Assembly: GCA_025358575.1 (NCBI GenBank)
Contig: JANYJA010000011.1
Location: 1-36,663, forward strand
Source: Terriglobia bacterium
Lineage (GTDB): Bacteria; Acidobacteriota; Terriglobia; Bryobacterales; Bryobacteraceae
DNA: 36,663 bases
Direction of reading: 5' to 3'
Position 1 is the first letter of the stretch; every line of letters begins with the position of its first letter. The notes beneath the pieces were generated by a model. That model worked only from the letters and a program-made list of their open reading frames with translations. It made no database searches and was not told the DNA's origin. Below, piece after piece: positions 4,901 to 34,366 of this stretch. Both the position numbers and the translations under genes were made by a program.

Positions 4901-5560
4901 TTAGCGCAGCGGCCTCAGAGTTACACTTCTAGCACTGCACGTGTCACGCACGCCGTCACTGCAATCGCGTCCTTGAAGATCCTTGGTCAGGCAAACCCGA
5001 ACTTCTTTCAAGAAGCGATTGCTCTCACATTGCAATGAAAACGCCCCTTGCGAAAAGCCCGATTCCCGCGCGAACTTCTTCACGATATCGCTCGGGCCTA
5101 CTTGGATATTCTGCAGTGGACCCTTAAAGTCTGCTGGAATCGGGACCTTGCTGAAAGCCTGAATCACCGTTTTGAAGTAGTCCGTCTCCGAAAGACCCGC
5201 ACACGTGCCGTGACTTTCCCATTCGTGCTGGATCAGGATCGGGCTCGGCATGATATTGGGAAGACCGGCGGGAACCCGATTGGGATCGAAAGGCGCCCCT
5301 GCGCAGCTTTTTGGATATCCGCGTTCGTACTGCGGCCACAATCCATGCACGATAAATCCAAATTTCTTAACGCCTCCGCATTCCGGCGCATCCGGGTGAG
5401 AAGTACAGAAATCCGGAGACCAGGAAAGGCTGAGGACATAATAGTCGAAGCTGCCAGGTGGGGAACCCTGCGTATTACGTGCGCCCCGGTGGTGGGACCG
5501 CGCAAACGCCGGCACGCCCAGGAATAAGGTGAGCAATACGAGAGCGAAACGTAGTTTCAT
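4901..5560 (-). CDS. Ribonuclease T2 family, exported
   Basis: A 219-residue RNase T2, an endoribonuclease that cleaves single-stranded RNA through a 2',3'-cyclic phosphate. The ATG at 5558-5560 gives a signal peptide (MKLRFALVLLTLFLGVPAFA). Both catalytic segments are intact: CAS1 as FIVHGLWPQ (His72) and CAS2 as HEWESHGTC (His112, Glu113, His117). Many cysteines (FCTSHPDAPEC, KSCAGAP, LQCESN, RVCLTKD, DCSDG, DTCSA) suggest disulfides, which fits a periplasmic or secreted location. Length is close to the family norm. Likely role is scavenging nucleotides from external or periplasmic RNA. No convincing Shine-Dalgarno is seen; an upstream in-frame start would overlap the divergent GNAT and lacks a signal peptide. 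Confidence 0.93.
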   Translation of the reverse strand: MKLRFALVLLTLFLGVPAFARSHHRGARNTQGSPPGSFDYYVLSLSWSPDFCTSHPDAPECGGVKKFGFIVHGLWPQYERGYPKSCAGAPFDPNRVPAGLPNIMPSPILIQHEWESHGTCAGLSETDYFKTVIQAFSKVPIPADFKGPLQNIQVGPSDIVKKFARESGFSQGAFSLQCESNRFLKEVRVCLTKDLQGRDCSDGVRDTCSARSVTLRPLR

Positions 5561-5620
5561 TGACTTTAGTCTATTCAAAGATCCTGCGAAAATGACAAGA
5601 CGTAAATCGAAGCGGCTCTT

Positions 5621-6139
5621 ATGATCGGAATTCGACAACTGAACGCAACCGAAGGTTTCCAACACATGGAGGCGCTTGCCGAAGTTTTGCTTGACTGCGT
5701 GGAGGGAGGAGCCTCCGTTAGCTTCATGGCGCCTCTTCCGCGTGCCGCTGCGACATCTTTTTTTGAAAAAGTGGTTGAAGGAGTGCAACAGGGCGATCGC
5801 ATCTTACTGGCGGCCTTCATCGATTCAAAATTGGTAGGAACCGTGCAGGTCCTCCTCTCGACGCCTCCCAACCAACCCCATCGAGCGGATGTCGCTAAGT
5901 TGCTCGTCCTAAGATCAGCGCGCGGAAATGGGGTCGGCGCGAGTCTCATGGAGCACGCGGAGGAAGCCAGCCGACGCGCGGGCAAAACTCTTCTTGTGCT
6001 GGACACAGTCACTGGCGGCAACGCCGAGAAGTTGTACACGCGCCTGGGCTGGAACCGAGTGGGAGTTATCCCAAACTATGCGCTGTTTCCCGACGGAACA
6101 TGGTGCGACACCACAGTCTTTTGGAAAAAACTGATCTAA
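5621..6139 (+). CDS. GNAT family N-acetyltransferase
   Basis: A 172-residue single-domain GCN5-related acetyltransferase. The acetyl-CoA binding motif A is clear around residues 90-108 (AKLLVLRSARGNGVGASLM, with the RxxGxG pattern in ARGNGVG), preceded by the beta-strand that contacts the cofactor and followed by a typical C-terminal strand region (KLYTRLGWNRVG, the family's 'Y.r.GF' position). It probably transfers an acetyl group to a small amine or antibiotic-like molecule, but no substrate can be assigned. It is transcribed divergently from the RNase T2 gene, with 60 bases between the two starts, and ends about 100 bases before the convergent M14 peptidase gene. Confidence 0.88.
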   Translation: MIGIRQLNATEGFQHMEALAEVLLDCVEGGASVSFMAPLPRAAATSFFEKVVEGVQQGDRILLAAFIDSKLVGTVQVLLSTPPNQPHRADVAKLLVLRSARGNGVGASLMEHAEEASRRAGKTLLVLDTVTGGNAEKLYTRLGWNRVGVIPNYALFPDGTWCDTTVFWKKLI

Positions 6140-30897: not shown

Positions 30898-30918
30898 GTA
30901 AGGGAGTTAGACAAGCGC

Positions 30919-30942
30919 CCAGACACCCCGAATCTTGTCTGG
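30919..30942 (+). promoter_or_regulatory. Inverted repeat between transketolase and the repeat-protein/M64 unit
   Basis: CCAGACA (30919-30925) and TGTCTGG (30936-30942) form a 7-bp stem with a 10-base loop; an overlapping alternative pairs AGACAAG (30909-30915) with CTTGTCT (30934-30940). No T-run follows. It could end the transketolase transcript or be an operator, since it lies just upstream of the -10-like box at 30963. Confidence 0.4.
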
Positions 30943-30999: not shown

Positions 31000-31485
31000 A
31001 TGGCTTGGACTTGGGGCACCAACACTCTGGGTGCTGGACAGACACAACGATGGTGGCTGTCGTGGCCCAAGGACCCTGGAATCGAAATGATCGGTGTGCA
31101 GGCGATCACTTCTGGAGCGGAAATCGATTTCACATCACCGGGAATTCAGGTCAACTCCGATGGGTCTGTCCTCTATTTCGTGACTATCATGAACCGCGGG
31201 AGCGTGCCGGCGCAGTATCACTTTACCGGCAGCAGCCGCGGCAGCTGGGTCTGGGGAACGAACACTTTGAACGCCGGCCAGACGCAGCGCTGGTGGCTTT
31301 CCTGGCCAGGATTCCCTGGACTCGAGATTGTTGAAGCGCTACCCGTAACACCAAGCTGCGAGATTGACTTTGCCTCAGCCGGCGTGCAGGTGAACACGGA
31401 TGGCTCGACCCTTTATTTCATTACGGTGACCAACCGAGGAAAATACGCGGTTGAATATCATTTTCGAGGCAGCGCGATCTGCTAA
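31000..31485 (+). CDS. Protein of two tandem WGTNT/QRWW repeats, unknown function
   Basis: A 161-residue protein, ATG at 31000 with AAGGAG nine bases upstream. It consists almost wholly of two repeats offset by 80 residues: residues 3-77 and 83-157. Each starts WxWGTNTLxAGQTQRWWLSWP, then xPGxExxx, EIDF-S-G-Q-VN-DGS-LYF-T--NRG and ends YHF-G. The high aromatic content and alternating pattern suggest a small beta-sandwich or beta-trefoil-like binding module, perhaps for carbohydrate or surfaces; I do not recognise it as a named family. No signal peptide or membrane segment. A third copy of the same module is at the C-terminus of the M64 peptidase three genes downstream. Synonymous positions differ widely between copies, indicating an old duplication kept by selection. 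Confidence 0.8.
   Translation: MAWTWGTNTLGAGQTQRWWLSWPKDPGIEMIGVQAITSGAEIDFTSPGIQVNSDGSVLYFVTIMNRGSVPAQYHFTGSSRGSWVWGTNTLNAGQTQRWWLSWPGFPGLEIVEALPVTPSCEIDFASAGVQVNTDGSTLYFITVTNRGKYAVEYHFRGSAIC
31006..31230 (+). repeat. WGTNT/QRWW module, copy 1
   Basis: First protein-level copy (residues 3-77 of the 161-residue protein). Conserved landmarks: WTWGTNT, GAGQTQRWWLSW, EIDF, VNSDGS and YHFTG. Confidence 0.8.
31246..31470 (+). repeat. WGTNT/QRWW module, copy 2
   Basis: Second copy (residues 83-157), offset 80 residues from the first. Landmarks: WVWGTNT, NAGQTQRWWLSW, CEIDF, VNTDGS and YHFRG. Confidence 0.8.
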
Positions 31486-31501
31486 TCGAGATAGGGAGAT
31501 T

Positions 31502-31735
31502 ATGACGCTAAATATTGTTTCGGATAGACGTGGCAATATTGTTTCCATCAGCCAATTCGGGGACGTCGGCGATAAAATTTCCGGGATAACCACTGCCGGG
31601 ATACAAGCGGAGCCTGGGCATCATATTCATGAGATCGAGGTTCCCGAAGAGCTGGGAGGAATTTCTCTTCTCGATCTTCACAAGAGCTACAAGGTTGAAA
31701 TCTCGAAGGGCGTGGGATGCCTAGTCAAAGCATAA
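31502..31735 (+). CDS. Small uncharacterised protein in the M64 unit
   Basis: A 77-residue protein starting at ATG 31502, 17 bases after the repeat-protein stop, with an AGGGAG element just upstream. Composition looks natural: MTLNIVSDRRGNIVSIS, then GITTAGIQAEPGHHIHEIEV and LLDLHKSYKVEISKG. Predicted (by eye) as beta-rich and soluble, without signal peptide or cysteine motif beyond one Cys near the end. I do not recognise a family. Its place between the repeat protein and the peptidase, on the same strand with short gaps, points to co-expression. Confidence 0.65.
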   Translation: MTLNIVSDRRGNIVSISQFGDVGDKISGITTAGIQAEPGHHIHEIEVPEELGGISLLDLHKSYKVEISKGVGCLVKA

Positions 31736-31755
31736 CCGTCTGATTGGAGGACACA

Positions 31756-32211
31756 ATGCCGCAGGTTGCACAACCGCCTCAAGTCCGTCCTTATAACGGC
31801 GCATTGCGCTTGACCTTCCAATATGAAGGGTCAAACGTGAAACTGGTATCGAAGCAAAAAGTGGAAATGATTCTGCCTCCAACGCAAGCGCTAACGGGGA
31901 ATGAAAATCAAACCGGTTTCTGGTTCATGCTGAGCAACGCGCAAGGCACGCCGGTGTATCGGCGCGCCCTCCACAATCCGATCGCATACGATCGTGAGAT
32001 TTTCTCTAATAACCCCGAGCACCCTTCCGTTCAGCGGGTACCCGTGGCTCAGCCCAAGGGCACATTCATCCTGCTGGTGCCGGATGTTCAGGAGGCAAAG
32101 ACAATCCAACTGTTCAGCCATCCGCTAAATCCGGCGGGACGCGGATTGGCCGCGAGCGAATTCGCTCGGTTCGACATTACGTCCGAACCTGACAAAGGAG
32201 AGAAGAAATAA
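31756..32211 (+). CDS. Uncharacterised beta-rich protein coupled to the M64 peptidase
   Basis: A 151-residue protein with GGAGG at 31746-31750 and ATG at 31756. It reads as an Ig-like or beta-sandwich domain: ALRLTFQYEGSNVKLVSKQK, then TGFWFMLSNAQGTPVYRRAL, and GTFILLVPDVQEAKTIQLF. No signal peptide. Its stop overlaps the peptidase ATG (TAATG), so the two products are probably made in similar amounts and may form a complex, for example as an inhibitor, chaperone or accessory domain; this is inference. I do not recognise a named family. Confidence 0.68.
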   Translation: MPQVAQPPQVRPYNGALRLTFQYEGSNVKLVSKQKVEMILPPTQALTGNENQTGFWFMLSNAQGTPVYRRALHNPIAYDREIFSNNPEHPSVQRVPVAQPKGTFILLVPDVQEAKTIQLFSHPLNPAGRGLAASEFARFDITSEPDKGEKK

Positions 32212-33320
32212 TGGGCGCGGGAGATGGGCAGGTAATTGGCACCACTCAAATTGTGGATCACGGGCCAGCGTCGCGAAAATGGAATTTAGTGATTCTGTCG
32301 GAGGGCTACCGGCAGGCCGAGTTGGCGAAGTTCCACAGCGATTGCGCGAGCTTCGTGAGCACGATGTTTGCCACGCCGCCATACGACGAGCTGTGGTGCG
32401 GCATCAACGTTTACCGAATTGACGTGGCATCGACCGATAGCGGCGCCAAAGATCCGACGGCGTGCGGAGGCACGGGCGCGAATCCGAAAACTTATTTCGA
32501 TGGGTCGTTCTGTAATGGGGGAATTCAAAGAGCGCTGGAAGTGAATAATTTAGCGGTTCACATGGTTGTGAATGCGCAGATGCCACAGGCGCACATGATT
32601 ATGGTCATCGTGAACAGCAATGAATACGGCGGGACGGGGGGGGACATTGCCACTTTTTCTCTAGCGACGGGGGCGAGCGAGATCGGTTTGCATGAGATGG
32701 GACACACCGCATTCGGATTCGCGGACGAGTATGAATATTACGCGGGTTGCGGGTCGGGCGAGACGGGACACGACAAGTACACGGGAGCGGAGCCGGCGCA
32801 ACCGAATGTAACCGCGGATTCAAACCGGGCCACTAACAAGTGGCGCGACCTAGTGTCTTCCGCGACCCCGATGCCGACGACCATAAACAAGGACTGCTCG
32901 AAATGCGATCCGCAAGGCAACCCGTCGTCAGCCGAAACGGTGGGCGCGTATGAAGGCGCATATTACAACCATTGTGGCGCTTATCGCCCGCAGTTCAATT
33001 GCAGAATGCGGGCCCTGAATAATCCCTACTGTGCCATTTGCCAGCGCGTCATCCGGCAGACTCTTGCACCCTACATGGCCAGTTGGACCTGGGGCACCAA
33101 TACGATCGGCGCCGGGCAGACACAGCGCTGGTGGTTATCCTGGGGCGCCTATCCGGGACTCGAATGGGTGGGAGTGCAACCCGCGACGCCCGGGGCGGAA
33201 TTGGACTGGGACACACCCGGCATGCAGCAGAACGCGGATGGTTCGGCACTGTACTGGATCACAGTTCGCAACAACGGTTCGACCGCGGTGCAATTCCATT
33301 TTCGCGGAAACGCACTGTAG
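32211..33320 (+). CDS. M64-type zinc metallopeptidase with C-terminal WGTNT/QRWW module
   Basis: A 369-residue protein. Residues about 10-288 are an M64 (IgA-peptidase-like) metallopeptidase: the opening block KWNLVILSEGYRQAEL (23-38), FGINVYRIDV-like segment (CGINVYRIDVASTDSG), and the zinc site HEMGHTAFGFADEY (His161, Glu162, His165, with Asp172 as likely third ligand). Cysteines at 229, 232, 255, 264, 274 and 277 lie around a C-terminal CRMRALNNPYCAICQRVI block typical of the family. Residues 292-366 are a copy of the repeat module found twice in the 161-residue protein of the same unit. No signal peptide is seen, unusual for M64 peptidases, which generally act outside the cytoplasm. Target unknown. 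Confidence 0.87.
   Translation: MGAGDGQVIGTTQIVDHGPASRKWNLVILSEGYRQAELAKFHSDCASFVSTMFATPPYDELWCGINVYRIDVASTDSGAKDPTACGGTGANPKTYFDGSFCNGGIQRALEVNNLAVHMVVNAQMPQAHMIMVIVNSNEYGGTGGDIATFSLATGASEIGLHEMGHTAFGFADEYEYYAGCGSGETGHDKYTGAEPAQPNVTADSNRATNKWRDLVSSATPMPTTINKDCSKCDPQGNPSSAETVGAYEGAYYNHCGAYRPQFNCRMRALNNPYCAICQRVIRQTLAPYMASWTWGTNTIGAGQTQRWWLSWGAYPGLEWVGVQPATPGAELDWDTPGMQQNADGSALYWITVRNNGSTAVQFHFRGNAL
33084..33308 (+). repeat. WGTNT/QRWW module, copy 3 (M64 C-terminus)
   Basis: Third copy, residues 292-366 of the peptidase: WTWGTNT, GAGQTQRWWLSW, PGLEWVGVQP, ELDWD, QNADGS and FHFRG. Confidence 0.8.
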
Positions 33321-33836
33321 TCAGCGTGCCGAGTCCGCGAGACCGACTAGGGCAGCTCCGGCGATTACCCAAATCGGGTCTCGGCGCGTAAAGGCGAGTA
33401 CTCCGAAACTAACAACTGCAATCCCAATGAGCAGTGGACTTGTGAGCGCATCTTTCGCGAGAGGCACCAAGGCGGCCCCTATCAGGCCGGCGGCGGCCAT
33501 GATCACGGCTTGGATCGCGCTCTTCACCGCGCGGATCTCGGCGCGCTTGCCGAGGTACCTGATCATGGGAATGATCAGGAAGGCGGGGGTGATCATGGCG
33601 AGCCATCCGGCGACTGCGCCCGCCGGGCCCGCGACAAAGTAACCGACGCTGACTACATAAAGTCCAAGGGGCCCCGGAGTGGCGCGACCGGCGGCCATTG
33701 ATGCGTTGAGTTGTCGTTCGGTAAGAACGTGTCGCGTTTCGACGAGGTCGTGCTGGATCACCGGCAGCGAAGTAGCGCCGCTGAATGAAGTCAGCGTCGC
33801 TTTGACCAGAAACAGGTACAACAGAAACGGGTTCAT
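33321..33836 (-). CDS. Chromate transporter subunit (second CHR half)
   Basis: A 171-residue membrane protein of the short-chain ChrA family, with about five or six hydrophobic helices. N-terminal LVKATLTSFSGATSLPVIQHDLV is a variant of the CHR signature, and ATPGPLGLYVVSVGYFVAG follows as in chromate transporters. Two-gene CHR pairs form the equivalent of one long ChrA, exporting chromate; some members move other oxyanions. Its ATG overlaps the upstream partner's stop by 4 bases, and its own stop abuts the convergent M64 peptidase stop without a gap. Confidence 0.85.
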   Translation of the reverse strand: MNPFLLYLFLVKATLTSFSGATSLPVIQHDLVETRHVLTERQLNASMAAGRATPGPLGLYVVSVGYFVAGPAGAVAGWLAMITPAFLIIPMIRYLGKRAEIRAVKSAIQAVIMAAAGLIGAALVPLAKDALTSPLLIGIAVVSFGVLAFTRRDPIWVIAGAALVGLADSAR

Positions 33837-34366
33837 GCGTGCCAGACCGCGCCCGCCGCGGCGGCTAGCGCCAGTATTTGGATGGGCGTCATTTTTAGAC
33901 GCGCGGCAAGCAGGAAGGCGAGACAGGCGATCGTGGCTGTTTTTATGGTTCGAGCACGCAGGTGGGGTTTAAGCAGAAGGTACGCGCCCGCAGCCATGAT
34001 CCCGATGGCGCCGGCAACCACACCGGAGATCGCTGCGATGGCGAGACGGTGAGAAGTCCACGAATCATATCCGGCGGATAGCAGTGCAACGAAGATTGAA
34101 GTTGGCATGGAAACGGCGAGGACGGCGAGCAAAGCGCCCGGCCACTTCGCGAGATCCCAGCCACTACCCGCGCAGAGAGCCAGAACATTGGTTCCCGGAG
34201 TGATGCGAGCAAGGCTGTAGATGAGGCCGTAACGTTCGGATGTCATCCACTCGCGCTTCACCAATTCGGCTTGCAGGGCGGCCATAGTCGGGTCGCCGCC
34301 ACCGAACGTGAGATTGCCGATTTTCAGAAACAGCGAAGTGACGCTGCGAAGTGACGGCTGAGACAT
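33833..34366 (-). CDS. Chromate transporter subunit (first CHR half)
   Basis: A 177-residue CHR-family membrane protein. The signature FLKIGNLTFGGGDPTMAALQ (residues 12-31) and the RITPGTNVLALCAGSGWDLA segment are typical of ChrA. It is transcribed before, and translationally coupled (ATGA) to, the second half. The start is only 22 bases from the start of the divergent HlyD-type gene, so their promoters must overlap the coding ends or each other. Confidence 0.88.
   Translation of the reverse strand: MSQPSLRSVTSLFLKIGNLTFGGGDPTMAALQAELVKREWMTSERYGLIYSLARITPGTNVLALCAGSGWDLAKWPGALLAVLAVSMPTSIFVALLSAGYDSWTSHRLAIAAISGVVAGAIGIMAAGAYLLLKPHLRARTIKTATIACLAFLLAARLKMTPIQILALAAAAGAVWHA

What the first reader, a model, noticed from the sequence alone, without database searches (positions are those of the whole stretch)
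31000..33320. Four-gene unit: repeat protein, two small unknowns and an M64 peptidase that share a binding module
Four short-spaced genes on one strand (17, 20 and -1 base gaps) encode a protein made only of two aromatic repeats, two uncharacterised small proteins and a zinc peptidase ending in a third copy of the same repeat. Sharing a module across separate genes of one operon suggests a common target or an assembly (for example binder plus cleaver). No member has a Sec signal peptide, which is odd for M64 peptidases and raises the idea of an intracellular or non-classically exported role. A boundary hairpin and a TATACT box lie upstream. I know of no described system with this make-up.
Basis: partly seen in the sequence, partly recalled or inferred. 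Interest (0 to 1): 0.8.

Follow-up and report, generated by a model that had tools for sequence, protein, structure and literature searches.

The report
Split M64 peptidase with shared module
Four neighbouring genes that travel together between distantly related bacteria appear to make a zinc protease whose usual front domain is a separate protein, plus a small two-gene module whose building block is also fused to the protease, probably to steer it to a common target.

Summary
The four genes are real, under purifying selection, and form a unit. The unit is two separable pairs. C-D is a split M64 zinc peptidase: D lacks the usual N-terminal domain, and C, unrecognised by Pfam, is predicted to have that beta-sandwich (Z 10.7 to residues 21-151 of 4df9; next unrelated fold 4.9). 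C lies directly upstream of D in all six loci held, three of them without A or B. A-B also occurs alone, with overlapping genes, at three loci. D's tail carries A's module only where the pairs are joined, which suggests targeting. No Sec-like signal is present, unlike 22 of 26 other M64 frames examined. The proposed hairpin and promoter are not supported. What A binds, what B does and where the proteins act are unknown. Verdict: a real, rare, modular variant of a known peptidase family.

The parts
31000..31485 (+). gene A: 161 aa, two tandem ~80-aa beta modules (GxTQxWW ... YFVTVxN)
   Evidence: AlphaFold2 model, best of five pLDDT 87.8, six strands per module
31502..31735 (+). gene B: 77 aa, partner of A; relatives directly downstream of A-type genes at five other loci
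31756..32211 (+). gene C: 151 aa, free-standing beta-sandwich with the predicted fold of the M64 N-terminal domain
32211..33320 (+). gene D: 369 aa M64 metallopeptidase lacking the N-terminal domain; HEMGHTAFGFAD fits HEXXHXXXGXXD
33075..33317 (+). A-type module at the C-terminus of D
30909..30942 (+). overlapping 7-bp inverted repeats upstream of A; not significant

Best explanation
C and D are two subunits of a split M64 zinc peptidase. D is the catalytic subunit. C is the N-terminal beta-sandwich that other M64 enzymes carry in the same chain, and it is proposed to dock on D and narrow the cleft, as the fused domain is suggested to do in BF3526, giving selective rather than general proteolysis. 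D's C-terminal part is an interchangeable targeting region: an A-type beta module here, vWA plus other domains or nothing in relatives. The same module, doubled, is the stand-alone protein A, which with its small partner B forms an independent pair. A and D therefore bind the same ligand or each other, so the peptidase is brought to the site where A/B sits. Shown: genes, order, conservation, the split gene arrangement, module swapping, separate occurrence of both pairs. Predicted: the fold of C. Inferred: C-D binding, cleft gating, the targeting role, B as stoichiometric partner of A, site of action.
For: Full unit in L009 (G465) and in L039. Profile of C built from two sequences, searched in 396 genomes: the window's own and four others, of which three have an intact frame (G197, G121, G239), each directly upstream of a D-type M64. 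Profile of D in 247 genomes: 110 have an M64 but only 4 are D-type (over 500 bits; the next is 176), and all 4 have C. C's model: the top seven Foldseek chains of 350,542 are BF3526, probability 0.92-0.99; Z 10.7, rmsd 3.0, 117 residues on 4df9 21-151, 3p1v 10.6, next 4.9. An ordinary M64 (L045, the one tested) carries PF16217 at 24-145; the HEXXH lies at residue 300 or later in 22 of the 26 next-best M64 frames held, in D-type at 160-187 in 4 of 4. A-B: with each locus left out of the profile in turn, B is the first hit and lies directly after A at L010, L034, L035, L039, L009 (E 1e-12, 2e-12, 3e-4, 3e-17, 1e-28). Profiles of all four proteins: C and D but no A or B at L017, L018, L019; A and B but no C or D at L010, L034, L035; all four, with A's module in D, at the window, L009, L039. 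vWA in D of L018 and L019. Suggested role of the BF3526 N-terminal domain: PMC12402451 (section 7 and part 1 of 2 of section 15 read).
Against: Sequence methods do not link C to M64_N: no Pfam hit, hhalign probability 0, no M64 hit in the PDB by profile. Foldseek E-values are only 0.019-0.061, none at 0.001 or less, TM-scores 0.37-0.46 by query; the link rests on VIA-align's Z and one predicted model of mean pLDDT 78.9 from six sequences. No complex was predicted or measured. The closest structures to A's module are weak (best Z 4.9), and only one of its five models is confident (64 to 73 for the others), so the targeting role is by position only. D has seven cysteines invariant in six sequences, which suits an oxidising place, yet there is no signal peptide. 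The unit is rare: 2 of 141 family genomes have a D-type M64.
Confidence: 0.6

Rival explanations
1. C is an inhibitor or immunity protein of D rather than its missing N-terminal domain: a peptidase effector and its partner, with A/B as delivery or display proteins, released by lysis or by an injection machine.
For: No signal-like N-terminus in C or D at five of six loci; tight coupling of C and D (overlaps of 4 bases in L009, L018, L019); an M64 peptidase in a predicted effector/immunity pair of a Salmonella T6SS (PMC10469887, one passage seen); a Phage_sheath_1 gene in the C-D genomes G121 and G197.
Against: C has the predicted fold of the M64 N-terminal domain, and in L019 both C and D carry hydrophobic signal-like N-termini. 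No Phage_sheath_1 match in G000, G465 or G239 drafts. No PADLOC or PHROGs match for the four proteins.
Confidence: 0.2
2. A-type modules self-associate: A/B build a polymer or shell and D is a built-in maturation peptidase of that assembly.
For: Same module in A (twice) and D (once); small coupled partner B; no export signal.
Against: A-B pairs occur at three loci with no C or D match in the 16-20 kb held (L010, L034, L035), so no neighbouring peptidase is needed there; no structural match to a shell or fibre protein rises above background.
Confidence: 0.12
3. The two pairs are separate functions that merely moved together.
For: Each pair occurs alone elsewhere.
Against: D carries A's module in the three joined loci and in none of the three unjoined ones; order kept in genomes binned to two phyla.
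Confidence: 0.08

Closest known systems
BF3526 / BACOVA_00663, M64 peptidases of Bacteroides (PDB 4df9, 9qdi, 3p1v)
   Same: catalytic domain related by sequence (E 5.6e-28 and 2.3e-26); N-terminal beta-sandwich has the predicted fold of C
   Different: both domains in one chain, with a signal peptide in BF3526 according to PMC12402451; no A-type module was seen in the alignment, which ends with the catalytic domain
ThomasA, M64 IgA peptidase of Thomasclavelia ramosa (PMC12402451)
   Same: M64 motif HEXXHXXXGXXD, accessory beta domains
   Different: large secreted multidomain protein; the paper says its N-terminal domain does not much affect catalytic efficiency
D-type M64 + vWA pairs with C
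   Same: C directly before D, D 47-54% identical over the M64 part
   Different: C-terminal vWA and other domains in place of the A-type module; L019 with signal-like N-termini
C-terminal beta domains of secreted peptidases (Tk-SP 3afg, ColG s3a/s3b 5iku; roles of these domains recalled)
   Same: beta module after a peptidase domain; first and 32nd rows
   Different: Z only 4.9 and 3.3, within background; no Pfam PPC match for A

Membership tests
Peptidase M64 (PF09471), for D | score over Pfam's cut-off | tested here: met
   145.6 bits, cut-off 26
Peptidase M64 (PF09471), for D | zinc motif HEXXHXXXGXXD | tested here: met
   HEMGHTAFGFAD at residues 161-172; H161 E162 H165 D172 invariant in six sequences
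Peptidase M64 (PF09471), for D | N-terminal domain PF16217 in the same chain (usual, not universal) | tested here: not met
   M64 match starts at residue 14 and no PF16217 match; positive control L045 has it
Peptidase M64 (PF09471), for D | proteolytic activity with zinc | not testable with these tools
   none
M64_N (PF16217), for C | score over Pfam's cut-off | tested here: not met
   no match for the window's C, L009's, L039's or L017's
M64_N (PF16217), for C | beta-sandwich fold of residues 21-151 of 4df9 | tested here: met
   Z 10.7, rmsd 3.0, 117 aligned; on a predicted model; Foldseek E 0.019
M64_N (PF16217), for C | lies next to an M64 catalytic domain | tested here: met
   as a separate gene directly upstream of D in six of six loci
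Contractile-injection or T6SS effector | sheath gene in the same genome | tested here: inconclusive
   PF04984: no match in the drafts G000, G465, G239; match in G121, G197, G075, G257 (4 of 7)
PPC, bacterial pre-peptidase C-terminal domain (PF04151), for A's module | Pfam match or clear fold match | tested here: inconclusive
   no Pfam PPC match for A; fold rows below Z 5
Known anti-phage defence genes | PADLOC model match | tested here: not met
   0 of 4 proteins at E 0.1

The most novel reading that the evidence does not exclude
The unit is a transferable two-part proteolytic complex of a kind not described: an A/B scaffold made of aromatic beta modules, and a peptidase whose gating domain (C) is a separate subunit, recruited to the scaffold through the same module, working without Sec export.
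Probability: 0.25. Interest if true: 0.8.

Novelty: new variant of a known kind. Interest (0 to 1): 0.56.

Why it matters
Few M64 peptidases have been characterised, and the paper read in part here (PMC12402451) leaves the role of the fused N-terminal domain as a suggestion. A lineage in which that domain appears to be a separate protein makes its role directly testable: add or omit C and measure D. The swap of C-terminal modules, and the reuse of the same module as a stand-alone operon partner, gives a handle on how such peptidases find targets. The A-B pair adds two protein families that no Pfam or NCBIfam model recognised over its cut-off.

Tried and rejected
Phage or plasmid origin: no relative of A in viral contigs, plasmids or phages, of C in plasmids, of D-type in viral contigs; D on plasmids finds 15 records with M64 at 28-33% identity; no PHROGs match for the four; no tRNA at the six sources scanned.

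Hits dropped before counting: C in G229 (E 0.005, two stops inside; no long open frame there); B in G585 (E 7.6e-4, within a 494-residue frame of another kind); A profile in G132, G291, G321 (E 0.0016-0.0057), which have no B at E below 0.4 in the stretches held. G291's frame later scored E 5.8e-13 with the wider A profile, but by seven repeats that each match only positions 33-72 of 81 (I take them, from recall, for DUF11-like).

The large genes upstream of the unit in L009 (357, 1870, 631 aa) were considered as part of it and left out: the 631-aa protein has no match in the window's genome draft, is found with other large genes in Rhizobium and Halalkalicoccus plasmids, and its loci in G075 and G257 have no A or B in the 19.5 kb held.

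Sequence proof that C is M64_N failed. Weak C-like matches are leads only: L044 C-terminus and L067 N-terminus, best-domain E 0.003 and 0.006 among 30 proteins (0.012 and 0.2), L047 upstream frame, E 0.078. Promoter and hairpin were tested and not supported. Rows for A's module are all below Z 5. Profile of B against PDB sequences: nothing convincing. Print: no split M64 and no A-type motif met in the listings (one search listed 8 of 23,982 and is uninformative); beyond listings I read parts of PMC12402451 and one passage of PMC10469887; the library holds open-licence papers only.

Full report
Observation. The window holds four short-spaced genes on the + strand: A 31000-31485, B 31502-31735, C 31756-32211, D 32211-33320, with gaps of 16, 20 and -1 bases. 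A is two tandem repeats of about 80 residues and D ends in a third copy, 59% identical to A's first. D matches Peptidase_M64 (E 2.4e-42) and solved M64 peptidases 4df9 and 3p1v. A, B and C have no Pfam match over its cut-off, and none of the four an NCBIfam match over its cut-off. Between the window and L009, non-synonymous differences per site are 0.10-0.22 and synonymous 0.71-0.78, so all four encode selected proteins. The region upstream folds no better than shuffles (z -0.99) and holds no promoter-like site that passes the scan.

Is it a unit? In the family sample (141 genomes) only the window's genome and G465 have a D-type M64, and G465 holds A-B-C-D in the same order: 78, 64, 69 and 83% by tblastn (78, 63, 68, 83% over full alignments). 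One scan of the 84,980-species collection with the A-type module, by a single degenerate peptide pattern and so of limited reach, matched 45 stretches and returned three relatives: L037 (the G075 locus), L038 (the G465 locus, a Terriglobia metagenome-assembled genome) and L039, a Geobacteraceae metagenome-assembled genome. L039 has the complete unit with the same lengths of A and D (161 and 369 residues) and 53, 41, 43 and 65% identity. Its unit has G+C of 0.54-0.60 in 500-base windows, against 0.61-0.67 in the genes at both ends of the contig and 0.46-0.55 in the gene-poor stretch before it. This suits transfer between phyla, but a mis-binned contig cannot be excluded for 5764 bases.

Two separable pairs. 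(1) C-D. A profile of C made from two sequences found, in 396 genomes of the phylum, the window's own and four others; three (G197, G121, G239) have an intact frame and one (G229) does not. In all three, C lies directly before a D-type M64: 40/56% (L017), 28/53% (L018), 25/47% identity (L019) for C/D. Independently, a profile of D found an M64 in 110 of 247 genomes, of which only four, the window's and the same three, score over 500 bits, the next being 176. A C profile finds C in those four of the 30 M64 loci held and nothing over 12 bits in the other 26 (the four also served to build that profile, so the independent evidence is). (2) A-B. A-type single modules in G075 (L010) and twice in G257 (L034, L035) are each followed, with an overlap of four bases, by a B-like gene. 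With each locus left out in turn, the B profile still finds that frame first among the frames of the locus: E 1e-12, 2e-12, 3e-4.

What C is. D's M64 match begins at residue 14. Of the 26 next-best M64 frames held from the phylum, 22 have the HEXXH motif at residue 300 or later, against 160-187 in the four D-type frames; two of the four exceptions are cut at their start. The one ordinary M64 put to Pfam, L045, carries the N-terminal family PF16217 at 24-145. I therefore guessed that C is this domain as a separate protein, and tested it by structure. The AlphaFold2 model of C (mean pLDDT 78.9, six sequences) has as its seven best Foldseek matches of 350,542 chains only BF3526 structures, though with E 0.019-0.061 and TM-scores of 0.37-0.46. 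VIA-align places it on residues 21-151 of 4df9 with Z 10.7, rmsd 3.0 over 117 residues, 3p1v 10.6, and the next unrelated fold at 4.9. Sequence comparison alone does not show it. In the published work on BF3526 the N-terminal beta-sandwich is suggested to restrict access to the active site and to serve a regulatory function (PMC12402451, section 15, part 1 of 2 read).

What A is. The model of A (mean pLDDT 87.8 for the best of five models, 64 to 73 for the others) has two six-stranded beta modules. No solved structure stands out: best Z 4.9 to residues 421-516 of a Thermococcus subtilisin (its C-terminal domain, from recall), level with unrelated rows. Position rather than fold suggests its use: the module sits after the catalytic domain in the three joined units, D carries vWA and other domains instead in L018 and L019, and nothing in L017.

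Location. By a simple hydropathy test (best 13-residue mean in the first 50), D has no signal-like N-terminus in five of six D-type loci and C in five of six, L018's C being intermediate (1.48); L019 has one on both (2.5-2.7). Of the 26 other M64 frames held, 22 score 1.77 or more, a limit I set after seeing the values, and two of the four below it are cut at their start. So the absence of a Sec signal is common to most of this branch. Seven cysteines of D are invariant in six sequences, which fits an oxidising place and leaves the question open. A sheath gene for contractile injection has no match in G000, G465 or G239 but does in G121, G197, G075 and G257, so that route is neither shown nor excluded.

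Reading. The best account is a split, targeted M64 peptidase joined to an independent A-B pair that uses the same module. I hold the split (C as detached N-terminal domain) at about 0.8, lowered from a first 0.85 on weighing the weak Foldseek scores; the joint function of the four genes at about 0.75; the cleft-gating and targeting mechanism as a whole at about 0.6. It is a new variant of the M64 family; the A-B pair is without a recognised family.

Noticed in passing
L009:1-8549: Three genes for large unknown proteins (357, 1870, 631 aa) lie upstream of the unit in G465, the last ending 884 bases before A. Relatives of the 631-aa protein are in G075 and G257, the two other A-B genomes, but not in G000 nor in the three C-D-only genomes searched, and in Streptomyces, Rhizobium (near a DUF6603 gene) and haloarchaeal plasmids.
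   Followed up: partly
L017:8469-9209: The C homologue has a long lysine- and alanine-rich N-terminal tail like that of histone H1 (comparison from recall) before the beta-sandwich part.
   Followed up: no
L018:5946-8693 and L019:1569-4286: D-type M64 fused to a von Willebrand factor A domain; L019 also shows PKD and a PPC match below its cut-off.
   Followed up: partly
L044 and L047: Two M64 peptidases of another branch whose HEXXH lies near residue 195 show weak C-like matches, one at its own C-terminus and one in a frame directly upstream with a hydrophobic start: the split may be wider.
   Followed up: partly
window 4901-5788 (-): Reading frame with an HGLWP motif, which I take from recall for an RNase T2 family secreted ribonuclease.
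   Followed up: no
window 33321-34366 (-): Two adjacent membrane-protein genes directly downstream on the other strand that look, from recall, like a split chromate-transporter pair.
   Followed up: no
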